In this document: positions 2,064 to 52,892 of the stretch, one piece after another
How positions within the stretch are numbered: position 1 is the stretch's first letter
Layout: the number at the start of each line of letters is the position of its first letter
Assembly (NCBI GenBank): GCA_028824415.1
Contig: JAPPDX010000129.1
Location: forward strand, 1-64,000
DNA length: 64,000 nt
DNA from: a bacterium
GTDB taxonomy: Bacteria > Actinomycetota > Acidimicrobiia > Acidimicrobiales > CATQHL01
Direction of reading: 5' to 3'
Made by a program: the position numbers and the translations under genes
The notes under the pieces: generated by a model
Seen by the model: the letters and a program-made list of their open reading frames with translations, nothing else
Databases searched by the model: none
Told to the model about the DNA's origin: nothing

Positions 2064-4703
2064 TCAGGACCGCAGGGCGATGCCGTCGGGATCCCAGAGG
2101 CAGCGGTCGATGAGATGCGCGGGCCGCCGTACGCCCACGAGTTCGATCTCGAAGGCGGTGTCCTTGGTGGCAAGCGCCGCCGGCACGTAGCCGAGTGCCA
2201 CCGAGGTGTCGCTGTGATGGGCGTAGCCGCCGGAGGTGACCCAGCCCACCGGCCGGCCGTCGCACCAAATGGGTTCGTCACCGCTGGCATCGATGCCGTC
2301 GGGCCCGGTCGGGGTGTCGATCGTCCAGGTGCGCAGCGCCATCATGCCGTCGCCTGTCTCCTCGGTCGGATGCCGGCTACCCGACGAGCCGTACCTGGCG
2401 GCCAGGGCGGCGCGGCCCACGAAGTCGGATCCGTCGTCGTCTCCGCGGGTCATCCGGATGAAGCGGCCCAGCCCGGCCTCGAACGGGTCGTAGACGGGGC
2501 GGTACTCGCGAGCCCAACTCCCGAAGCCCTTCTCGAGGCGCAGCGAGTTGAGGGCATGGCTGCCGAACAGCGTCAGACCGTGCTCGTGGCCGCAATCGGC
2601 GAGAAGCTCGAAGACGTGGCGCTGGTAGCGGGCCGGCATCCACAACTCGTAGCCGAGCGCACCGGTATAGCTGAGCCGCACACACCACACCCGGGCCAGG
2701 CCGACTTCGATCTCGGCGATGCTCCCGAAGCGCATGGCCTCGCTGGAGATGTCAGCGTCGGTGGCCGCGGCCAGCAGTTCCCGCGACGCCGGTCCGGCGA
2801 TGGCCAGCCCGCAGGTCTCGAAGCCCAGGGTGCGGTAGGCAACCTCGGCGCTCCGTCGCCCGGCGCCGGAGTCCGAGGAGGCCCAGGCGGCCAGGTCGGC
2901 GTCGAACCAGCGCTCGTAGTACCGCTCGGCCACCCCGGAGCCGAAGATCACGAAGCGCTCGCCACCGGTCGCCGTGTTGGCTGTGGCGCCCCCGGTGGCG
3001 GTGTCAGCGGGGCCATCGCGCCGGCCGCCGGCTGCGGGCAGACAGGCGACCGTGAGATCGCCGGCGAGCTTGCCGGCGGCATTGCACATCGGGGCGAGGG
3101 ATATGCGGCCGGGCTCCGGCACCCGCGCCGCCACCAGGTGGTTCAGCCATTCCCGCGCCCCGGGTCCCTCGACCAGGAACTTGGCGAATCCCGAGGACTC
3201 CATGAGGCCGACACGGCGGCGCACGGCGCGGACCTCCTCGCGCACGTGCGGCCAGGCGTTGGAGCGCCCGAAGGTGACCTCCTCGACGGTGTCGGGCCGC
3301 GGCGCGTACCACAGCGGCACCTCGAGGCCGAATGTGTCGCCGAACACCGCACCCCTGGCGCGCAGCGTGTCGTGGACGGGTGTGGTGGCAAGCGGTCGCC
3401 CTTCCGGCAGGTACTCGTTCGGGAACCGGATGTTGAAGCGGCGGCGATAGTTCTCGGGCACCTTGCGTGCGACGTATGAGCGGGTCGCCCAGTCCCCGAA
3501 CCGGGCCACGTCCATGGCCCAGGAGTCGAAGCCCGGATCCCCGCGGGTCATCCAATTCGCCAGCGCCAGGCCTACGCCGCCGCCCTGGGACAGCCCCGCC
3601 ATCACCGCACAGGCCGACCAGAAGCCCCCCAGACCCCGTACGGGTCCCACCAACGGGTTCCCGTCGGGAGCGAACGTGAACGGGCCGTTGACCACCTGTG
3701 CGATCCCGGCATCGGCCAGCACCGGGAAGTGCTCGAACGCGATCTTCAACGATGGGGCGAGTCGGTCCAGGTCCGGCGCCAGCAGGCGCCGGTCGAAATC
3801 CCAGGGCGTCGAGGCCGGTTGCCACACCTTCGCCGCCTGCTCGTAGGTGCCCAGCAGCAGTCCCTGGCCCTCCTGCCGCAGGTAGATCTCGCCGCCGAAG
3901 TCGATCGCGTGGATCATCTCCTCGCCGGTGTTCTCGTTGTGGGCGATCACCTCGGGGATCGGCTCGGTCAGCACATACATGTGCTCCATGGCCAGCAGCG
4001 GCAGTTCCACCCCCACCATGCGCCCCACCTCGCGCGCCCAGAGCCCGGCCGCATTCACGACGTGCGGGGTCTCGATATACCCGTCGGTGGCGCCGGAGGA
4101 GCCGTCGCCGGCGAGGTCGCCCGCGGCGGTGTCGTACAGCCCGATCCGCCAGTCGCCCGCGGCGGTGCGCTCGATCGAGCGGGCCCAGGTGTGGCGGCGC
4201 ACCTGGGCACCTGTGGCGATGGCGCCTTTCACGTAGGCGTGGGTGACGCCGGCGGGGTCGACGTGGCCGTGGAGCGTGTCGGCCATCGCCCCGACGAAGT
4301 GACTGGGATCGACGATCGGCAGTCGCCGGGCCGCCTCGGCTGCGGAGATCATCTCGGTGTCGATGCCCAGGTACCGATTGCGGGCGTGAACCATCTTCAG
4401 CCAGTCGAGGCGCTCAGGCGTGTCCGCGAGGCTCACCCCGCCGGTGACGTGGATGCCGCAGTCCTGGCCCGAGGCGGTCTCGATCTCCCGGTACAACTCG
4501 ATGGTGTACTGCTGCAGCCTGGCGACGTCGGGGTCGGCGTTGAGGGCGTGCATGCCACCGGCGCTGTGCCACGTGGAGCCCGCGGTCAACTCCGAGCGCT
4601 CCAGGAGCACCACGTCGGTCCAGCCGGCTCTCGTGAGGTGGTAGAGCACGCTGGCGCCGACGACGCCGCCGCCGATGACGACGGCCCGGGCGTGATCGGT
4701 CAC
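2064..4703 (-). CDS. FAD-dependent dimethylglycine/sarcosine dehydrogenase with C-terminal GcvT (folate-binding) domain
   Basis: An 879-residue two-part enzyme. Residues 1 to about 400 form a DAO-type FAD domain: the dinucleotide motif GGGVVGAS is at residues 11-18, followed by ERSELTAGSTWHSAGG and NAAGLWAREVG as in the DMGDH/SARDH family. The second half (about 430-870) is a GcvT/aminomethyltransferase-like fold, which in this family binds tetrahydrofolate and captures the one-carbon unit. The likely reaction is oxidative N-demethylation of dimethylglycine or sarcosine. Its start overlaps the Rieske oxygenase stop by 4 bp (ATGA), indicating translational coupling. Position at the end of a betaine uptake and oxygenase operon supports the role. 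Dimethylglycine versus sarcosine cannot be separated by eye. Confidence 0.85.
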   Translation of the reverse strand: MTDHARAVVIGGGVVGASVLYHLTRAGWTDVVLLERSELTAGSTWHSAGGMHALNADPDVARLQQYTIELYREIETASGQDCGIHVTGGVSLADTPERLDWLKMVHARNRYLGIDTEMISAAEAARRLPIVDPSHFVGAMADTLHGHVDPAGVTHAYVKGAIATGAQVRRHTWARSIERTAAGDWRIGLYDTAAGDLAGDGSSGATDGYIETPHVVNAAGLWAREVGRMVGVELPLLAMEHMYVLTEPIPEVIAHNENTGEEMIHAIDFGGEIYLRQEGQGLLLGTYEQAAKVWQPASTPWDFDRRLLAPDLDRLAPSLKIAFEHFPVLADAGIAQVVNGPFTFAPDGNPLVGPVRGLGGFWSACAVMAGLSQGGGVGLALANWMTRGDPGFDSWAMDVARFGDWATRSYVARKVPENYRRRFNIRFPNEYLPEGRPLATTPVHDTLRARGAVFGDTFGLEVPLWYAPRPDTVEEVTFGRSNAWPHVREEVRAVRRRVGLMESSGFAKFLVEGPGAREWLNHLVAARVPEPGRISLAPMCNAAGKLAGDLTVACLPAAGGRRDGPADTATGGATANTATGGERFVIFGSGVAERYYERWFDADLAAWASSDSGAGRRSAEVAYRTLGFETCGLAIAGPASRELLAAATDADISSEAMRFGSIAEIEVGLARVWCVRLSYTGALGYELWMPARYQRHVFELLADCGHEHGLTLFGSHALNSLRLEKGFGSWAREYRPVYDPFEAGLGRFIRMTRGDDDGSDFVGRAALAARYGSSGSRHPTEETGDGMMALRTWTIDTPTGPDGIDASGDEPIWCDGRPVGWVTSGGYAHHSDTSVALGYVPAALATKDTAFEIELVGVRRPAHLIDRCLWDPDGIALRS

Positions 4704-6052
4704 GCCTGCTCCGAAGCGGCCGGCGCGGCAGGATTCTCGGCGAGGGCTTCGATCTGCGGCGGCGCCGGGTTCGGAGGAGTGCCGTAGCGGTCGGTGTCAC
4801 CGGGCTCGTCGCCCTGCGGGATTGCCAGATCGCTCATCGAGTCAAGCGTCATCAGGTCGGCCACCATCCTGTGGAACCGGTTGACCGGCTCCTCGAAGCG
4901 GGGTGCGAGCGGGCCCGGTGGTGCGCCGCCCCGGGTGACGCCCCGCTGGGCCCGCTCGCAGATGTCGATGTCCTCGTCGTTCACCTCGATCCAGAACCGG
5001 CGCGTGACCTCGAAGGCATCGACGACAGCAGTCGGCGGTGATGTCCCGGTCGCGGGCCCTGGCGGGAACAGGAACGTGCAGTGCTCGACCGTTCGGCCGG
5101 CCGCCAGCGGCTCCAGCAACACGATGAAGGTGTGGTTCGGGAGCGCGGACAGCAGCACGTTTGGGAAGAGGGTCACGAACCGGCCGCTGGTGGCGTCGGA
5201 CTCGTCCAGACCGGCGGCCGGCGGGAGTGTCAGCCAGTCGTCGCGTTGATCCCCGGAGACCGGCGTGGTGGTCTGGCCGCAATACATGCCGGGTCCCTGG
5301 TAGCGGTAATGGTCCTTCACCCGAGACACCTTGGCCAGCTCGGGGTGAACCCAGCCCAGGTGGTAGTACTCGGCGAAGTTCTCGGCCAGGAGCTTCCAGT
5401 TGGCGGCGACATCGAAGGTGCAAGCCGACATCGCCGGGGCCGCGGTGTCGCCCCCGTCGGCGAGTTCGGGGAGCGTGATCGGCCGCCACTTCTCCAGCCC
5501 GTAGCCGGCCATGCGCGCCGCCAGGTCGCCGAGCCAGGTTGCCAGCGGGGCCGTGTGATCGTCCAGGCAGGCGAACACGATCGGGCCCCACGTCTCGGTC
5601 CGCACGGGGATCAGTCCCCAGTCGGCCATGTCGAAGTCGTCCCGGGGGATGCTGTCGAACAGCGGCGCCGCCACGAGTCGGCCGTCTGTCCCGTATCCCC
5701 AGCGGTGGTAGGGACAGCGGATTGTGTTGCCGATGTCGCGGTCGGCCTCGGCCAGCTCGGTGCCCCGGTGACGGCAGGCGTTCAGGAAACCCCTGATCCC
5801 CGCGTCCGACCGGGTCAGCAGGATCGAACGACCGCCGACCGACCGCACCAGCAGGCGGCCGGGCCTGGCCAGCTCCCACGCCAGCGCCACCCCCACCCAG
5901 GCTCGGCCGAAGAGTCGCTGCTGTTCCGATTCGAAGAAGGCCTCGTCGGCATAGGTGGCTGGGTGCATGCCCATCGCCGAGCCGACGTCCCGCCGATTGT
6001 CCGTCCAGAACTGCGGCTCGATCCACGGCGGGATGGCTGTCGAGGGGGTCAT
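4700..6052 (-). CDS. Rieske non-heme iron oxygenase alpha subunit, probable glycine betaine monooxygenase (GbcA-like)
   Basis: A 450-residue ring-hydroxylating-type oxygenase. The Rieske 2Fe-2S ligands are C93 and H95 (CRHRG) and C113 and H116 (CPYH). The mononuclear iron site is visible as NFAEYYHLGWVHPEL (H231, H236), with a later Asp in NDEDIDICERA. The subfamily that demethylates quaternary amines (GbcA, carnitine CntA, stachydrine demethylase) has Glu before the first His ligand, as here (E228). Betaine transport genes upstream and the dimethylglycine dehydrogenase downstream make glycine betaine the best substrate guess; carnitine or proline betaine remain possible. No reductase component (GbcB type) lies in the window, so electrons must come from an unlinked partner. 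Confidence 0.82.
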   Translation of the reverse strand: MTPSTAIPPWIEPQFWTDNRRDVGSAMGMHPATYADEAFFESEQQRLFGRAWVGVALAWELARPGRLLVRSVGGRSILLTRSDAGIRGFLNACRHRGTELAEADRDIGNTIRCPYHRWGYGTDGRLVAAPLFDSIPRDDFDMADWGLIPVRTETWGPIVFACLDDHTAPLATWLGDLAARMAGYGLEKWRPITLPELADGGDTAAPAMSACTFDVAANWKLLAENFAEYYHLGWVHPELAKVSRVKDHYRYQGPGMYCGQTTTPVSGDQRDDWLTLPPAAGLDESDATSGRFVTLFPNVLLSALPNHTFIVLLEPLAAGRTVEHCTFLFPPGPATGTSPPTAVVDAFEVTRRFWIEVNDEDIDICERAQRGVTRGGAPPGPLAPRFEEPVNRFHRMVADLMTLDSMSDLAIPQGDEPGDTDRYGTPPNPAPPQIEALAENPAAPAASEQA

Positions 6053-45386: not shown

Positions 45387-46913
45387 ATGAGCGACGTGGG
45401 TCGACGGTTGGCGGAGGCGCGGGCCGCCACCGAGGGTCCCACCGAGGCGGGCGCCGTCAGGCTGTCCCGCCAGAACAAGCTGTACGTGCGGGATCGCTTG
45501 GCGCTGCTCTTCGATCCCGACACGTTCGTGGAGGACGCCCTCTTGGCCAATGCGACCGCCGGCGGCCTGCCCGCCGACGGAGTGATTACTGGCCGTGGCC
45601 TCGTGGAGGGCCGCCCCGCGGTGGCCGTCGCCAACGATCCGACGGTGAAGGCCGGCTCGTGGGGCGCCCGCACCGTGGAGAAGATCATCCGCGCCACCGA
45701 GGTCGCCTTGGCCAACGAGCTGCCGGTCTTCTGGCTGGTCGACTCCGCCGGCGCCCGTATCACCGACCAGGTGGAGCTTTTCCCGGGCCGGCGTGGCGCG
45801 GGGCGCATCTTTCACAATCAGGTGAGGCTGTCGGGCCGGGTGCCGCAGATCTGCTGCCTCTTCGGGCCGTCGGCTGCGGGCGGGGCCTACATCCCGGCGT
45901 TCTGTGACGTGGTGTTCATGGTGGAGGCCAACGCCTCCATGTACCTGGGGTCGCCGCGCATGGCCGAGGTGGTCATCGGCGAGGTGGTGTCGCTGGAGGA
46001 GATGGGCGGCGCTCGCATGCACGCCACCGTCTCGGGCTGCGGCGACAACCTTTTCGCCGACGACGAGTCGGCCATCGAGGCCGCCCGGGCGTGGTTCTCC
46101 TACCTGCCCACCTGCTGGCGCGAGCCCCCGCCTCCGGCGCAGCCCGTGTCGCCGTCACGTGTTCTGGACGGCTCGGCCATTCCCGCCGAGGCCACCCAGG
46201 GCTACGACATGCGCCGGGTCATCGACGGGCTCGTCGACGCCGGCAGCTTCTTCGAGCTGAAGCCCGATTTCGCCCCCGAGCTGATCGTGGGACTGGCCCG
46301 TCTTGACGGCAACTCGGTGGGGATCCTGGCCAACAACCCGGCTGTCAAGGGCGGGGTGCTGTTCAGCGACTCCGCCGACAAGGCGGCGCGGTTCATCTGG
46401 CTGTGCGATGCCTTCAACGTGGCGCTGGTGTACCTGTGCGACGTGCCCGGGTTCATGATCGGCACCGAGGTGGAGCGCGGCGGCATCATCCGACACGGCG
46501 CCAAGATGATCACCGCCGTCTCCGAGGCCACGGTGCCGCAGGTCTCGGTCATCGTGCGCAAGGCCTACGGCGCGGGCTTGTACGCCATGTGCGGTCCCGC
46601 CTTCGATCCCGACGCCTGCCTGGCGCTGCCGAGCGCCTCCATCGCCGTGATGGGCCCCGAGGCCGCGGTCAACGCCGTCTTCGCCAACAAGATCGCCGCC
46701 ATTACCGATCCGGCCGAGCGGGAGGCCTACGTCGCCGCCCAGCGTGAGGCCTACGAGGCCGACGTCGACCTGCTGCGCCTGGCCTCGGACCTGGTCATCG
46801 ACGCGGTCGTCAAACCCCAGGACCTGCGCGACGAGGTCATCCGGCGCCTGGCTCTCGCCGCCGGCAAGGACCGCCACTTCTCCCACCGCCACCACGGCAT
46901 CCCCCCGGTCTGA
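45387..46913 (+). CDS. Acyl-CoA carboxylase carboxyltransferase subunit (propionyl/methylcrotonyl-CoA carboxylase beta type)
   Basis: 508 residues. Both halves of the carboxyltransferase fold are present: N-half DSAGARITDQVELFPGRRGAGRIFHNQV and CCLFGPSAAGGAYIPAFCD, C-half NNPAVKGGVLFSDSADKAARFI, CDVPGFMIGTEVERGGIIRHGAKM and KAYGAGLYAMCG. It transfers a carboxyl group from biotin to an acyl-CoA. No biotin carboxylase or biotin carrier gene is in the window, so the holoenzyme must use unlinked subunits. It is divergent from the ABC transporter operon with 195 bp between. Its last 63 bp recur at 50651-50712. Confidence 0.92.
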   Translation: MSDVGRRLAEARAATEGPTEAGAVRLSRQNKLYVRDRLALLFDPDTFVEDALLANATAGGLPADGVITGRGLVEGRPAVAVANDPTVKAGSWGARTVEKIIRATEVALANELPVFWLVDSAGARITDQVELFPGRRGAGRIFHNQVRLSGRVPQICCLFGPSAAGGAYIPAFCDVVFMVEANASMYLGSPRMAEVVIGEVVSLEEMGGARMHATVSGCGDNLFADDESAIEAARAWFSYLPTCWREPPPPAQPVSPSRVLDGSAIPAEATQGYDMRRVIDGLVDAGSFFELKPDFAPELIVGLARLDGNSVGILANNPAVKGGVLFSDSADKAARFIWLCDAFNVALVYLCDVPGFMIGTEVERGGIIRHGAKMITAVSEATVPQVSVIVRKAYGAGLYAMCGPAFDPDACLALPSASIAVMGPEAAVNAVFANKIAAITDPAEREAYVAAQREAYEADVDLLRLASDLVIDAVVKPQDLRDEVIRRLALAAGKDRHFSHRHHGIPPV

Positions 46914-47069: not shown

Positions 47070-50000
47070 CTAGCTGTTGCCGGCGGACGCGGGCTCGGCG
47101 TTTCGGGTGATGGTGACGGTGTGGGTCTCGTCGGTCGCCGATTCCAGGGTGACGGTGTAGCCGCGGGTGGTGATGCTCTGGCCCTCGGTCAGGATCGGGT
47201 AGGAGTCCAGCCGTCCGTTGCCGGTGTCAGCGGCCAGCCTGATCGGCAGCAGACCTGAATCCTGCGCCCCATCCACGATGTACACCAGAACGCCCTCGGC
47301 GGCCAGGCCGGGGAGTTTGGCACGGGCTCCGTTTGTCCAGTGGAAGTCCCAACCGGCGTCGTAGCCGATGCGGCGCCTGCTCTCGATGACGAGCATCTCG
47401 GTGTCGGATAGCGGTATCGCTGCCATGGCGGGTCCGTCGCCCGGGGCGGCGACGGGCGTCAAGCTGACCGACGTCTCCGGATGCCTGATGCAGCGGATCT
47501 GCGTCTCGTCGAGCCAGCCAAGCAGCCAGCGACTCCACGCCAGCATCTCACGAGCGGTGATTGCGTCGCTGTGTTGAGTAGACGTCGCGCCGTTGGCGTG
47601 GCGCACGATGTACGCGAGTCGCGGGTCGCGCACATCAGTGAGGAAACTGCCCCCGAATCCCATGGGCCCGAAGACTGCTACCGCCCAGACTTTGCCCGGC
47701 GGCGCCTCGGGCAACTGGCGGACGCTGCTGTCGTATAGGTGTCCGTAGAAGTAGTAGTCCGCAAGTCCGAAGTTGTGAAGAAGCTCGTGCGCGGCGACCT
47801 TGCCCCACTGGACCGGCGGACGCGGACGATCCTGGACGGGGAAGGCGTTGATCCGGGTGAGCGCGGGCACGACTCCTTCCCGGGTCGTGGCGGCCCAGCC
47901 TGCGTCACCGCCGCTGAAGTGCGAACTCGGCATGACGAACATCACCGAGTCGATCGCGCTGAAGTCGAAATCTGCGTCGGCGAGCCTTACCGCCATTTCC
48001 GCGAGGGATCGCTGCGCCTCGCCCGTTAGACCCTCGCCAAACTCGGGCGGGCTGTAGTCCGCTCTGAGCCAGCGATGCAGCGGCACGAACTCGATGTCGA
48101 GCTTCCCGTAGCTCGAGGCCTTCAGATATTGCTCCACGACCGGCAGGCCGATCCCTGCTTCGCGTGCGGTCGTGTGAGACGCCGCGGCGTGTGGGAAGTC
48201 TACGAAAAGCACTGCTACCCGCACGGTGCCGTGGGCAGGGAGGGCCCACGGCGGCAGGGGGAAGCCCGCGGTGGTCTGGCTAGTTCCGTGGGGTTTGCAT
48301 GCGTCGGGATCGGCGCTGGTCACGATGGTGACACCGGGCGGTGTGGCCGCCATGGGGGTGAAGTGCCAGCAGGCGATGGTGCCGTTGGTGCGCAGTCCAC
48401 AGACGTGCCGGTTGCCTGCGGTGACCGCGCTGAAACTCCCCGCCGGAGGGCGGGCCAATCCGCCGTTGTAACCCCAGCAGTTGATGGTGGCATCGGTTCT
48501 CAGCCCGCACGAGTACCAAGGGCCCACGGTCACCGAGCTGAACTCTCCGACCGGCGGCGTGCTCTGGCCGTGCCAGTCGGCGCCCCAGCAGGCAACGGTG
48601 GAGTCAACTCGCACGCCGCACGAGTGATCGTTGCCGACCGCCACCGACGTGAAGTAACCCCGGGGTGCTCTGGCCCGGCCGTGGGCGTCGTTCCCCCAGC
48701 AGGCCACAGTGCCATCGTCACGAACGCCACACGAATACAGCACGCCGGCGGCCACCGACGCGAACTCTCCTTCGGGGACGTCGAGCTGGCCGTGCTCGTT
48801 GTCGCCCCAGCAGGTGACGGTGCCACCACCGCCGAGGGCGCACGAGTGAAGCCAGCCCGCGCTGACGGCGCGATACTGCCCGTCGGGAGGGTTGGCCTGG
48901 CCGTGGGAGTTGTCGCCCCAGCACGCGAGCGTGGCGTCGCCGCGCAGTCCACAGGAGTGCCACGTTCCGGCCGAGACCCTGCTGAACTGTCCAGACGGAG
49001 CGCTGGTCCGTCCCGACTTCTGATTCCCCCAACACTCGATGGTGCTGTCGCTGCGCCGCGCGCACGTGTGCTGCGTCCCTGCGTCCAACTCGCTGAAGAG
49101 CCCATCGGGAGCCGCCGTTGGACGACGTGAGTTGCCCCAGCAGGCAATCGCACCATCGGCGCGCAAGCCGCAGCTGTGCAGGCCGCCCGCTGCAACGCTC
49201 TCGAACGCTCCGTCAGGCGCGTTGGCCTGGTCGTAGTGGTTGTCGCCCCAACAGGCGACCGTAGCGTCGCGACGCACACCGCAGGAGTGCCAGATGCCGC
49301 CGCTAACTGCGATGAACTCTCCGCTTGGCGCGCCGGACTGGCCGGTTGAGTCGGCTCCCCAGCAGGTGAGGGCACCGTCGCCGTCGAGTGCGCAGGAGTG
49401 GTGGTCGCCGGAAGCGACGGCACTGAACACGCCGCCGGGCGCCTCCGTTTGACCGTACGTGTTGTCGCCCCAGCAGGTGATGGTGCCGTCGACGCGCAGC
49501 CCACACGAATGCACCACGCCGGCGCTCACCCCGGCGTACGTCCCAGCGGGCACGAGCCCCTGCCCGGAGCCGTTGCTGCCCCAGCAGACCACGCGGTTGT
49601 TCGTGGCGACGGCGCACGAGTGATACGCGCCCGCGGTGATCGAGTGGAAGTACCCGACGGGGGCATTGGTCTGTTGGTGGGTTCTGTCGCCCCAGCAGAC
49701 AATGGTCGAGTCCAGCTTCAGGCCGCAGGTATGGCGGGCCCCGGCCGCGAGGGCGCTGAACTCTCCGGGGGGAGCGTCAGCCTGTCTCCAGCCGTTCTCG
49801 CCCCAGCAAGTGACGCCGCCGTCGCGACGCACCCCGCACGAGTGATAGAAGCCCGCCGCTATCCCGGAGTAGACGGTGGTGGTGCTCGTCGTTGCCGCGG
49901 TGCCATCGGCTGCCACCCTAAGCCTCAGCGGTGAGCTGCGGAGCCATCGGCCGATGTCGGCGTCAGGGGGCAACAAGCGCACCCTTGGGAGGATTCGTTC

Positions 50001-50393
50001 GCTCCAGGAGTCTCTGGTCAAGCGCTGCTCGACCCCGAACTCGACCCTGCCGTCGTCGAGCCTGCGGGCCGCGATCCGCAGCGTCGTCCCGGGGTCCCTC
50101 ACGTCGACTGCCAGCGGGGAGCTGCGGAGCCATCGGCCGACGTCGGCGTCGGCAGGGAAGAAGCGCAGTCTCGGGAGGATTCGCTCGCTCCAGGAGTCGC
50201 CGCTCAGGCGCCGCTCGACCCCGAACTCGACCCTGCCGCTGTCGAGCCTCCGCGCCACGATGCGTACGTCGGCATCCGCGCCCGACGGATCAGCCGCTTG
50301 TTGCTCCTGACCAGTCGCAACCGCCGCGACGGTGCCGACGCCGAGGACAGCGAGCAGCGCCGCCACCGCGACTCGGACCAGCGCCACTCTCAT
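47070..50393 (-). CDS. Secreted RCC1-repeat protein fused to a C-terminal M6-like zinc metalloprotease
   Basis: About 1107 residues. A signal-type N-terminus (MRVALVRVAVAALLAVLGVGTVAAV), then two copies of a roughly 55-residue module (VRIVARRLDSGRVEFGVERRL to FFPADADVGRWLRSSPL), then 14 RCC1-like repeats of about 37 residues, each with two Cys (HSCGLR...CWGDN), enough for two seven-bladed propellers. The C-terminal third has the metalloprotease motif HELLHNFG followed by DYY, and ends with a beta-rich part. Likely exported; the propeller may bind carbohydrate or protein and the protease act on it, but substrates are unknown. ATG at 50393 is chosen as it directly begins the signal peptide. Confidence 0.85.
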   Translation of the reverse strand: MRVALVRVAVAALLAVLGVGTVAAVATGQEQQAADPSGADADVRIVARRLDSGRVEFGVERRLSGDSWSERILPRLRFFPADADVGRWLRSSPLAVDVRDPGTTLRIAARRLDDGRVEFGVEQRLTRDSWSERILPRVRLLPPDADIGRWLRSSPLRLRVAADGTAATTSTTTVYSGIAAGFYHSCGVRRDGGVTCWGENGWRQADAPPGEFSALAAGARHTCGLKLDSTIVCWGDRTHQQTNAPVGYFHSITAGAYHSCAVATNNRVVCWGSNGSGQGLVPAGTYAGVSAGVVHSCGLRVDGTITCWGDNTYGQTEAPGGVFSAVASGDHHSCALDGDGALTCWGADSTGQSGAPSGEFIAVSGGIWHSCGVRRDATVACWGDNHYDQANAPDGAFESVAAGGLHSCGLRADGAIACWGNSRRPTAAPDGLFSELDAGTQHTCARRSDSTIECWGNQKSGRTSAPSGQFSRVSAGTWHSCGLRGDATLACWGDNSHGQANPPDGQYRAVSAGWLHSCALGGGGTVTCWGDNEHGQLDVPEGEFASVAAGVLYSCGVRDDGTVACWGNDAHGRARAPRGYFTSVAVGNDHSCGVRVDSTVACWGADWHGQSTPPVGEFSSVTVGPWYSCGLRTDATINCWGYNGGLARPPAGSFSAVTAGNRHVCGLRTNGTIACWHFTPMAATPPGVTIVTSADPDACKPHGTSQTTAGFPLPPWALPAHGTVRVAVLFVDFPHAAASHTTAREAGIGLPVVEQYLKASSYGKLDIEFVPLHRWLRADYSPPEFGEGLTGEAQRSLAEMAVRLADADFDFSAIDSVMFVMPSSHFSGGDAGWAATTREGVVPALTRINAFPVQDRPRPPVQWGKVAAHELLHNFGLADYYFYGHLYDSSVRQLPEAPPGKVWAVAVFGPMGFGGSFLTDVRDPRLAYIVRHANGATSTQHSDAITAREMLAWSRWLLGWLDETQIRCIRHPETSVSLTPVAAPGDGPAMAAIPLSDTEMLVIESRRRIGYDAGWDFHWTNGARAKLPGLAAEGVLVYIVDGAQDSGLLPIRLAADTGNGRLDSYPILTEGQSITTRGYTVTLESATDETHTVTITRNAEPASAGNS

Positions 50394-50771
50394 GCAGCGT
50401 CTCGGCTCCGGGCCAACTCGGCCCCCTTCTCCTGCCCGCACGACCCGGTCAGAGTCTGCGGGCCGCGTCCTGCTGGCTGGCTGCCACAGACGCGAGGCTC
50501 TCGATGCTCAGCGCCACGATGACACCGCCACGCCGACCTGCGCGAGTCGACGCATCACGTCAGATCCCCTCGCTCCCTGTTCCTTGCCGGGCTTCGTCGA
50601 TACCTTCGGACCAAGTCCGGCCACAATAGTTGTGACGATTCCGCATGCGGGCTCTCGCCGCCGGCGGGACCGCCATTTCTCCCACCGCCACCACGGCATC
50701 CCCCTGGTCTGAACGTCCCCCTGGTCGATTCCCGAGAGGAGTGGTCGGGAACGGCGCGAGCGATCAGCCGG
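50394..50771. other. 378-bp spacer between the two RCC1-repeat genes
   Basis: Contains the stranded 3' fragment of the carboxyltransferase gene (50651-50712) and otherwise no gene or strong hairpin that I can see. It should carry the promoter or leader of the metalloprotease gene, but no boxes are assignable. Confidence 0.6.
50651..50712 (+). pseudogene. Duplicated 3' end of the acyl-CoA carboxyltransferase gene
   Basis: 62 bp matching 46851-46913 with about four substitutions and a one-base deletion, up to and including the TGA stop. The encoded tail (RHFSHRHHGIPLV) matches the true C-terminus (RHFSHRHHGIPPV). Only the terminal fragment is present, so it is a non-functional relic of duplication or insertion around the metalloprotease gene. 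Confidence 0.9.
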
Positions 50772-52892
50772 TCAGGGGCGTACGAACTGCACGCCGTTGG
50801 GCGGGGCGATCACGGTCGAGCGGCCCCAGCAATCGACGGTGCCGCCGGGGCGCAGGCCACAGGAGTGGTCCAGGGACGCCGTGATGGCGATGAACGTCCC
50901 GACCGGCGCGTCCGACTGGCCGTTGTCGTTGGTTCCCCAACAGGACACCGTGGCGTCGGTCCGGAGTCCGCATGTGTGGGTGCCGCCGGCTGCCAGCGCG
51001 GTGAACGTCCCGCTCGGTGCGTCCGTCTGCCCGTGGGTGTTCAAGCCCCAGCAGGCAACCGTACGGTCGGTGCGGATCCCGCAGGTGTGAACGGTCCCCG
51101 CAACGACCGCGCTGAAAGTCTCCCTCGGGGGTTTAGCACTGCCGTTGCGGTCGAGTCCCCAGCAACCGACGGTCCCGGCGCGGCGGAGCGCGCACGAGTG
51201 CAGGTGACCGGCGGCGACGGCGGTCGCGTCGCGGATCGAGCCCGAGGAGGCCTGGTGCATCGAGTTGCTGCCCCAGCAGACGACCGAGCCACTGGTGCGA
51301 ACGCCGCAGGTGTGCCGGCCTCCGGCCGAGATTGCCGTGAAACGCCCGCCGGGCGCGTCCGCCTGCCGGGTGTCGTTCATCCCCCAGCAGGCGACGGTGC
51401 CGTCCGTACCGAGCGCGCAGAGGTGGCTGCCGCCGGCGGTGATGGCGGTGAACTGCCCGCGCGGCGCGTCCGTCTGGCCGTGGGCGTTGTTGCCCCAGCA
51501 GGCAATTGTGCGGTCGGGGCGCAGCCCGCACGTCTGGAAGTAGCCGGCCGCGAGCGTCGTGAACTCCCCGCCCGGGTCCTCTGCGCGCTGCATCACGTCG
51601 TACCCCCAGCACTCGACGGTGCCGTTGGGGCGCAGACCGCACGAGTGATTGCCGCCGGAGGCCACCGATGTGAACTGCCCTCCGGGCGGGTCCGTCTCAC
51701 CGGCGGCGTTATGGCCCCAGCAGGCAACCGTTCCGTTGGTCCGGATCCCGCACGAGTGAAAGCTCCCCGTGCTGACGGCGCGGAACGTCCCGTCAGGTGC
51801 ATCCGTCTGGCCGAACGGGAACTGCAGGAGGTTGCCGGCGCAGGCGACGGTCCGGTCGGCGCGGATGACACACGCATGGAAGACGCCGACGGAGACCGCT
51901 CGGTATTGACCGTCGAACTCCTCGAGTTCAGCGAGCGAGAGGCCCCAACAGTCGATCGTCCGATCTCGGCGCAGGCCGCACGAGGGTGTCGGACCGACGT
52001 CGATCTGCCTGAACTCACCGTCCGGGATGAAGGCACCCACCTCGCCCCAGCATCGGACCGCGCCGCTCGTGCGCAGCCCGCAGGTCTGGTTGTGGGCGGC
52101 CGTGATGGTGCTGAACCGACCTGATTGCGCCGACGCCTGACCGTGGTCGTTCCTGCCCCAGCAGGCCACCGTGCGGTCGGCTCGGATGGCGCACCCGTGC
52201 CCGTTGCCGGCGGCGACGGCGGTGAAGGTGCCGTCAGGGGGATCTTCCCTCTCCTCGCCGGTCGAGCCCCAGCATTCGATGCCGCCACCGGTGGTCAGCC
52301 CGCACGAGTAGCCGGATCCGGCGGCGATGGCGGTGAACCTCACCGCCGGTGTCGTGGCTGGCACGGGCTGCGATTCCCACACCGTCAGCGGTGTGCTGAC
52401 CAGCCAGCGCCCCACCCGGGTGGCGGCGGGGAAGAAGCGCTGCCTCGGCAACAACCGCTCGCCCCAGGAGCCGTCGGACTCGCGGCGCTGGAGCGCGAAC
52501 TCGATGCGGTTGTCGGCATCGCGCCGCGCCACGATGCGCACCTCGACATCGCCGACGGGTGCCTCGTCCGCCGCGGTCTCCAGACTCAGCGACAGCGGCG
52601 TGCTGACCAGCCAGTGCCCCACACGCGACTCCGCTGGGAAGAAACGACGGGTGGGCAGAAGCCGCTCGCCCCAGGAGTCGTCCGGCTGCTGTTGCTGCAG
52701 CGCGAACTCCGTGCGCCCGTCGGCGATGCGCTGCGCTGTGATGCGGACCGTGATTTCCGGCTGCTCGGCGCGGGCGTCCTCCTGTGCTCCGACGGCGGAG
52801 GGCATGGCCGCGATCGCTGCAACGGCGAGCAGCGCCACGACTGCCCGCCAAACGAGGCGAGCGCCGCGCCTGGTCCCCCGTGGTGTCGCCAT
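50772..52892 (-). CDS. Secreted RCC1-repeat protein (propeller only, no protease domain)
   Basis: 706 residues. Signal peptide (VVALLAVAAIAAMPSAVGAQ), two copies of the same roughly 55-residue module as in the neighbour (VRITAQRIADGRTEFALQQQQ to FFPAESRVGHWLVSTPL), then 14 RCC1-like repeats with paired Cys (HSCGLRPNGTVECWG). It ends right after repeat 14 (PPNGVQFVRP). A paralogue of the metalloprotease fusion that lacks the catalytic part; they lie in tandem on the minus strand. The regular Cys pairs suggest disulfide-stabilised blades outside the cell. Function unknown; binding is more likely than catalysis. Confidence 0.85.
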   Translation of the reverse strand: MATPRGTRRGARLVWRAVVALLAVAAIAAMPSAVGAQEDARAEQPEITVRITAQRIADGRTEFALQQQQPDDSWGERLLPTRRFFPAESRVGHWLVSTPLSLSLETAADEAPVGDVEVRIVARRDADNRIEFALQRRESDGSWGERLLPRQRFFPAATRVGRWLVSTPLTVWESQPVPATTPAVRFTAIAAGSGYSCGLTTGGGIECWGSTGEEREDPPDGTFTAVAAGNGHGCAIRADRTVACWGRNDHGQASAQSGRFSTITAAHNQTCGLRTSGAVRCWGEVGAFIPDGEFRQIDVGPTPSCGLRRDRTIDCWGLSLAELEEFDGQYRAVSVGVFHACVIRADRTVACAGNLLQFPFGQTDAPDGTFRAVSTGSFHSCGIRTNGTVACWGHNAAGETDPPGGQFTSVASGGNHSCGLRPNGTVECWGYDVMQRAEDPGGEFTTLAAGYFQTCGLRPDRTIACWGNNAHGQTDAPRGQFTAITAGGSHLCALGTDGTVACWGMNDTRQADAPGGRFTAISAGGRHTCGVRTSGSVVCWGSNSMHQASSGSIRDATAVAAGHLHSCALRRAGTVGCWGLDRNGSAKPPRETFSAVVAGTVHTCGIRTDRTVACWGLNTHGQTDAPSGTFTALAAGGTHTCGLRTDATVSCWGTNDNGQSDAPVGTFIAITASLDHSCGLRPGGTVDCWGRSTVIAPPNGVQFVRP

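What the first reader, a model, noticed from the sequence alone, without database searches (positions are those of the whole stretch)
47070..50393. RCC1 double propeller fused to an M6-like metalloprotease
Fourteen repeats, two duplicated N-terminal modules and a HELLHNFG protease in one exported protein. Each blade carries two Cys, fitting disulfide-locked extracellular propellers. RCC1 repeats are best known from eukaryotic proteins and some effectors, so an interaction with another cell is possible.
Basis: partly seen in the sequence, partly recalled or inferred. Interest (0 to 1): 0.65.

Follow-up and report, generated by a model that had tools for sequence, protein, structure and literature searches.

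The report
Propeller-guided, surface-type metalloprotease family
The window encodes an exported protein in which two disulfide-type seven-bladed propellers (a likely grabbing tool) sit in front of a zinc protease; it belongs to a bacterial family in which the probable cell-surface anchor and the propeller have each been swapped for unrelated parts that probably do the same job.

Summary
The ORF at 50393..47070 (minus strand) encodes a signal peptide, two ~56-aa modules, 14 RCC1 blades (each C-x9-CW) and a C-terminal M6-like zincin with HELLHNFGLAD. Blade counts across 48 RCC1 proteins cluster on 7, 14, 21 and 28, so 14 blades most likely form two seven-bladed propellers. The zincin misses the curated M6 cut-off (49 against 110.8 bits) but is clearly homologous to M6 proteins (profile-profile E=6e-45). 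The fusion is not a one-off. Two sister species keep it at the same locus (dN/dS ~0.3), and RCC1+M6 occurs in at least nine genomes of three families of the order. A fourth family carries the same zincin behind an unrelated PD40 propeller and CWB2 wall-binding repeats; others carry SLH repeats. A second zincin family, absent from Pfam and NCBIfam, sits behind seven RCC1 blades in the same genus. Recurring plan: anchor, propeller, metalloprotease. Best reading: a protease held at the producer's own surface, aimed by its propellers. That the modules are anchors is inferred from position; the substrate is unknown. RCC1 propellers also occur in free-living bacteria, so host interaction does not follow, though it is not excluded.

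The parts
47070..50393 (-). RCC1 double propeller + M6-like protease gene (ATG start; a GTG 48 nt upstream extends the ORF to 50441)
50310..50393 (-). predicted Sec-type signal peptide (MRVALVRVAVAALLAVLGVGTVAAVATG); no lipobox
   Evidence: read from the sequence; no signal-peptide program was available
50100..50267 (-). N-terminal module 1 (A1 family, 56 aa)
49914..50081 (-). N-terminal module 2 (A1 family), 86% DNA identity to module 1
49101..49874 (-). propeller 1: RCC1 blades 1-7, each C-x9-CW
48333..49100 (-). propeller 2: RCC1 blades 8-14, each C-x9-CW
47103..48296 (-). M6-like zincin domain (residues 716-1113)
47757..47789 (-). zinc/catalytic motif HELLHNFGLAD (HExxHxxGxxD)
   Evidence: motif meaning from PMC3890501
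50772..52892 (-). tandem paralogue: signal peptide + 2 A1 modules + 14 RCC1 blades, no protease
46868..46913 (+). 46-nt 3' end of the acyl-CoA carboxylase gene, first copy
50667..50712 (+). second copy of the 46-nt carboxylase 3' end (96%), between the two RCC1 genes: likely scar of a local duplication

Best explanation
It is a Sec-exported, propeller-guided zinc protease that most likely works at or near the outer surface of the cell that makes it. The two N-terminal modules attach it to the envelope. The two disulfide-stabilised seven-bladed RCC1 propellers bind one or more target proteins or polymers through the loops of their faces. The M6-like zincin then cleaves what is held, or proteins next to it. 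Shown by computation: the domain order, blade count and Cys pairs, homology to M6, an intact HExxHxxGxxD motif, conserved synteny and purifying selection, and the repeated anchor-propeller-zincin plan with swapped parts. Inferred: that the A1 modules are anchors, that the propellers choose the substrate, that the zincin is active, and where it acts. The substrate is unknown.
For: Domain order and motifs. Blade counts in multiples of seven. The zincin is M6-like: profile-profile probability 100%, E=5.8e-45, against stand-alone proteins of the phylum of which one is shown to pass the TIGR03296 cut-off, with the Met-turn Met aligned; a weak Foldseek match to metzincins including the M6 structure 4yu5. 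Orthologues in G003 and G005 lie in the same carboxylase-PPK2 slot with dN/dS 0.31-0.34 in both propeller and protease. Part swapping: CWB2x3+PD40+M6 in family f59, SLH+RCC1+M6 in f35, SLH+RCC1+HELAHVYD zincin in G042, A1 modules in our genus. A1 modules also sit on an amidase and a substrate-binding protein of the same genome, as a general envelope module would. Closest solved propeller: BLIP-II, a secreted RCC1-type propeller that binds its target proteins at picomolar to femtomolar affinity (PMC6121496). The blade positions just before the conserved His (-2, -1) differ strongly between blades yet vary less between orthologues, as a fixed binding face would.
Against: The G003 and G005 orthologues have no A1, SLH or CWB2 part, so anchoring is not universal. 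Some relatives have modules + M6 without a propeller (L087, L084 12412-15057), so the propeller is not needed in every member. A1 has no detectable relation to a known wall-binding domain. Both structure models are of low confidence (mean pLDDT 61 and 53). No activity, localisation or target is known.
Confidence: 0.55

Rival explanations
1. A freely secreted scavenging protease: the propellers only stabilise the enzyme or tether it loosely to particles or polymers, and it feeds the cell by degrading bulk protein.
For: Orthologues without any N-terminal anchor; RCC1 propellers are common in proteins of environmental bacteria, one of them annotated as a cutinase in Rhodococcus qingshengii from oil-contaminated water.
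Against: The repeated presence of SLH, CWB2 or A1 parts in the same place and conserved blade-specific positions argue for a held and selective enzyme.
Confidence: 0.22
2. A contact protein aimed at another organism (an animal host, protist or competitor): the propellers bind a foreign surface protein and the protease cuts it.
For: Very large, variable RCC1 repertoire in the genome (150 repeats scored); cadherin-like parts on another RCC1 protein of this genome; known RCC1 effectors in Legionella (from general knowledge; the review PMC7542358 was found but not read).
Against: No delivery signal other than Sec was seen; surface-anchor parts in relatives; RCC1 propellers are equally at home in bacteria from soil, water and sediment. 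Habitat of the carriers is unknown here.
Confidence: 0.13
3. An envelope-maintenance (sheddase or processing) protease acting on the cell's own surface proteins, many of which carry the same RCC1 and A1 parts.
For: The genome makes about 18 RCC1 proteins and about 25 A1-module proteins as potential own substrates; the adjacent paralogue 50772-52892 has the same modules and propellers without the protease.
Against: No processing motif was identified; the protease family also exists where A1 modules do not.
Confidence: 0.1

Closest known systems
M6 family / immune inhibitor A type metallopeptidases (TIGR03296)
   Same: HExxHxxGxxD motif, Met-turn Met and GW(L) motif aligned, clear profile-profile homology to proteins of the phylum of which one is shown to score above the cut-off; exported
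   Different: Scores well under the curated cut-off (49.2 against 110.8 bits); a divergent order-level subfamily that is usually fused behind a propeller and anchor
[quoted passage not shown]
   Same: Best solved relative of the propeller by sequence (1jtd_B, E=1.7e-29); secreted bacterial RCC1-type seven-bladed propeller with three-stranded blades and very tight protein binding (PMC6121496)
   Different: Single propeller, no Cys pairs in the aligned blades, no protease; an inhibitor rather than a substrate-capturing part
Plant CRINKLY4/ACR4 receptor ectodomain
   Same: Extracellular RCC1-type seven-bladed propeller with a Cys pair in each blade, C(X~10)CWG (PMC4617170); 7a0j matched at E=1.6e-25
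   Different: Spacing here is C-x9-CW; receptor kinase, no protease; almost certainly not orthologous
CWB2-PD40-M6 proteins of family f59 in the same order (e.g. L086, L204, L210)
   Same: Same zincin (45-48% identity for L086) behind a beta-propeller and an N-terminal surface part
   Different: Propeller is PD40/TolB-like and the anchor is CWB2, both unrelated in sequence to RCC1 and A1
RCC1-cutinase protein of Rhodococcus qingshengii (WP_081559475.1)
   Same: RCC1 repeats near the N-terminus of a protein annotated as a hydrolase
   Different: Annotated as an esterase-type enzyme, not a protease; single record, not studied further

Membership tests
RCC1_2 repeat (PF13540) | Curated gathering score | tested here: met
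   283.5 bits against 22, 14 stretches
RCC1-type seven-bladed propeller | Blades in closed sets of seven | tested here: inconclusive
   14 blades here and 35 of 48 related proteins at exact multiples of 7 support it; closure itself was not seen, as the model is of low confidence
CRINKLY4-type Cys-paired RCC1 blades | Two Cys per blade followed by WG | tested here: met
   14/14 blades C-x9-CW, WG in 13 of 14; spacing is one shorter than C(X~10)CWG
CRINKLY4-type Cys-paired RCC1 blades | Disulfide bond within each blade | not testable with these tools
   needs a structure or mass spectrometry
M6 metallopeptidase domain (TIGR03296) | Curated NCBIfam cut-off of 110.8 bits | tested here: not met
   49.2 bits; relatives 26 to 73 bits
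M6 metallopeptidase, broad sense (clan MA(M)) | Homology to proteins that pass the M6 cut-off | tested here: met
   hhalign probability 100%, E=5.8e-45 against A4, whose first member scores 174.5 bits
M6 metallopeptidase, broad sense (clan MA(M)) | HExxHxxGxxD and Met-turn Met | tested here: met
   HELLHNFGLAD; FGPM aligned with WDIM
M6 metallopeptidase, broad sense (clan MA(M)) | Metzincin fold | tested here: inconclusive
   Foldseek probability near 1 to metzincins but E >= 3e-3, on a model of mean pLDDT 61
M6 metallopeptidase, broad sense (clan MA(M)) | Proteolytic activity | not testable with these tools
   needs an assay
Cell-wall anchor (SLH PF00395 or CWB2 PF04122) | Pfam match of the N-terminal modules | tested here: not met
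   no Pfam or NCBIfam match over the A1 modules; only the position is equivalent
Injected RCC1 effector | Delivery by a host-directed secretion system | not tested
   only a Sec-type signal was seen by eye; no search for secretion systems was made

The most novel reading that the evidence does not exclude
The order has a general platform of surface-held proteases built as anchor + propeller + zincin, in which the propeller is an exchangeable aiming cassette (RCC1 or PD40) used with two unrelated zincin families, one of them (HELAHVYD) new; the A1 module is a new, near genus-specific wall-binding domain; and the large RCC1 repertoire diversifies to recognise proteins of other cells.
Probability: 0.2. 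Interest if true: 0.72.

Novelty: new variant of a known kind. Interest (0 to 1): 0.5.

Why it matters
Single fused proteins are easy to dismiss. Here the same plan recurs with non-homologous parts: three kinds of N-terminal surface part, two kinds of propeller and two kinds of zincin. Such replacement suggests a shared function (hold at the surface, grasp, cut) and turns a hypothetical protein into a testable family. It also gives a lead to a possible new envelope-binding module and to a zincin-like family absent from Pfam and NCBIfam, and shows that Cys-paired CRINKLY4-like propellers are an ordinary bacterial tool rather than a eukaryotic signature.

Tried and rejected
Relation of the A1 module to the double N-terminal module of the Dehalococcoidia RCC1 protein L033: looked alike by eye, hhalign probability 0.5%, rejected. 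Phage origin: the RCC1 query found no relatives in viral contigs; M6-like relatives there are stand-alone proteins, 24-26% identical. Structure of the M6 domain alone: poorer than the full-length run (mean pLDDT 53), so not used. Flanking 46-nt repeat as a mobile-element end: only two copies in the genome, both the carboxylase gene end; read as a duplication scar. Literature on RCC1 proteins of sponge symbionts: nothing direct found; Robbins et al. 2021 (PMC8163846) does not mention RCC1 in its main text. The idea that L033 comes from a sponge rests on memory of the bin name and was not confirmed.

Full report
OBSERVATION. The gene is real and as described. Pfam finds RCC1_2 at E=8.6e-87 in 14 stretches. 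All 14 blades carry two Cys in C-x9-CW, so the 28 blade Cys are all paired; the only other Cys in the mature chain, Cys715 and Cys984, flank and lie in the protease domain, and the second is invariant among its homologues. Two 56-aa modules (A1) precede the blades, 75% identical in protein and 86% in DNA, so their doubling is recent. NCBIfam finds TIGR03296 (M6) at E=6.6e-13 but below its cut-off.

PROPELLERS. Over 48 RCC1 proteins collected from this genome, its order and L033, blade counts are 7 (11 proteins), 14 (18), 21 (3) and 28 (3), with few others; 35 of 48 are exact multiples of seven, p about 7e-20 against one in seven if they were independent, which they are not fully. L033 has 14 blades, a linker, then 14 blades. 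So 14 blades most likely make two closed seven-bladed propellers. The full-length AlphaFold2 model shows 14 three-stranded repeats but is too weak (mean pLDDT 61, pTM 0.39) to show closure. By sequence the closest solved structures are BLIP-II (E=1.7e-29) and the plant receptor ACR4 (E=1.6e-25). BLIP-II binds its targets at picomolar to femtomolar affinity (PMC6121496); the CRINKLY4 family has C(X~10)CWG in each blade, proposed to be disulfide-bonded outside the cell (PMC4617170).

PROTEASE. An alignment of eight homologous domains (A3) compared with four stand-alone proteins of the phylum (A4), of which the first scores 174.5 bits to TIGR03296, gives probability 100% and E=5.8e-45 over 318 columns, with HExxH and the Met-turn Met aligned. 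Foldseek on the weak model ranks metzincins (ADAM, snake-venom type) first and includes the M6 structure 4yu5, E-values 3e-3 and worse. M6 is in clan MA(M) (PMC3890501). It is therefore called M6-like here and not filed as a TIGR03296 member.

LOCUS AND SELECTION. In two other species of the genus (G003, G005) the same slot between the acyl-CoA carboxylase and PPK2 genes holds one RCC1+M6 gene, without A1 modules. (The names of these two neighbours are from inspection of the sequences, not a family search.) In the window the slot holds two RCC1 genes: the protease fusion, and an upstream paralogue without protease (50772-52892). A 46-nt copy of the carboxylase 3' end lies between them and occurs nowhere else in the genome, which fits a local duplication. 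dN/dS is 0.31-0.34 in both the propeller and the protease part: both are under purifying selection. Blade positions -2 and -1 before the conserved His differ strongly between blades (entropy 3.2 and 2.8 bits) but are unchanged between the three orthologues in 7 and 10 of 14 blades.

FAMILY. In 99 relatives the domain was found in 5 genomes. A profile search of 397 genomes of the order found 30. The close members (E below 1e-100) lie in four families: f1 (ours), f35, f36 and f59. Of those read, ten proteins in nine genomes of f1, f35 and f36 are RCC1+M6 with 7 or about 14 blades; about fifteen in f59 are PD40 propeller + M6, most with CWB2 repeats; the rest lack a propeller (A1+M6, CWB2+M6, SLH+OpuAC+M6). 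N-terminal surface parts are A1 in our genus, SLH in f35, CWB2 in f59. The tree groups the window protein with its two orthologues, then with A1+M6 of G003 and RCC1+M6 of f36 (98/89), so the RCC1+M6 fusion is probably older than the genus, while A1 looks like a genus-level addition. In 397 genomes of the phylum, matches outside our genome are weak and those read in full are stand-alone. The f59 set includes paralogues with broken motifs.

SECOND, PARALLEL FAMILY. Four tandem genes on contig C41 (L036) have seven RCC1 blades followed by a 240-aa domain with HELAHVYD and a conserved E-x-x-A-D; three of the four have A1 modules. No Pfam or NCBIfam family matches this domain, nor any solved structure convincingly. 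It was found in our genus and in G042 only, among 60 relatives. All nine full-length proteins read have seven blades; in G042 the N-terminal part is SLH, with no A1 detected. So propeller + zincin arose at least twice, each with alternative anchors. That this second domain is a protease is inferred from its motif alone.

A1 MODULE. 44 matches in this genome; present in all eight genomes of the genus, weaker in the one other genus of the family sampled, absent from the other 90 relatives. It sits mostly in pairs after the signal peptide of RCC1 proteins, zincins, an Amidase_3 protein and a substrate-binding protein. That it stands where relatives have SLH or CWB2 is the argument for an envelope-binding role; it has not been shown.

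HOST QUESTION. RCC1_2 occurs in 42 of 99 genomes of the order and RCC1 propellers in plasmid-encoded proteins of Deinococcus, Acidovorax, Hymenobacter, Paenibacillus, Rhodococcus and others, several of them from soil, water or sediment, one annotated as a cutinase. RCC1 is thus no marker of host contact.

VERDICT. A real, conserved and modular protein family; most likely a surface-associated protease with propellers as the binding part (0.55). New as an architecture and as a set of interchangeable parts, built from known folds apart from A1 and the HELAHVYD domain, whose folds are unknown.

Noticed in passing
L036:2705-13261 (own genome contig C41): Four tandem genes: seven RCC1 blades + a ~240-aa HELAHVYD zincin-like domain with no Pfam or NCBIfam match; same family in G001, G003, G004, G005 and, with SLH, in G042 (L170).
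   Followed up: yes
window 49914-50267 and 52377-52748; 44 matches in the genome: A1 module: ~56 aa, near genus-restricted, tandem, on many exported proteins; three near-identical copies in L036:7440-9896.
   Followed up: partly
L090:1022-2707, L091:892-2586: A1 modules fused to an N-acetylmuramoyl-L-alanine amidase (Amidase_3) and to a periplasmic-type binding protein (Peripla_BP_6).
   Followed up: partly
L089:1006-2844 and 2924-4708: Two tandem proteins with A1 pairs at the C-terminus behind a long N-terminal region; Pfam gave no match for either.
   Followed up: no
L205:4292-7615, L212:8877-12359, L215:712-3195: M6-like paralogues of family f59 in which the zinc motif is absent or has HQ in place of HE: probably inactive relatives kept beside active ones.
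   Followed up: no
L211:987-4010: SLH + OpuAC (glycine-betaine-type substrate-binding domain) + M6-like zincin in one protein: the propeller position is taken by a binding domain of another kind.
   Followed up: partly
L033:5539-9264: Dehalococcoidia MAG protein with 14 + 14 Cys-paired RCC1 blades and two N-terminal modules of a different, unrelated-looking type.
   Followed up: partly
window 46868-46913 and 50667-50712: 46-nt direct repeat (96%) of the carboxylase gene end around the protease gene; only two copies in the genome.
   Followed up: yes
L221:2342-4876 (Rhodococcus qingshengii plasmid): RCC1 repeats in a protein annotated as cutinase: possibly another RCC1 propeller + secreted hydrolase, in a bacterium from oil-contaminated water.
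   Followed up: partly
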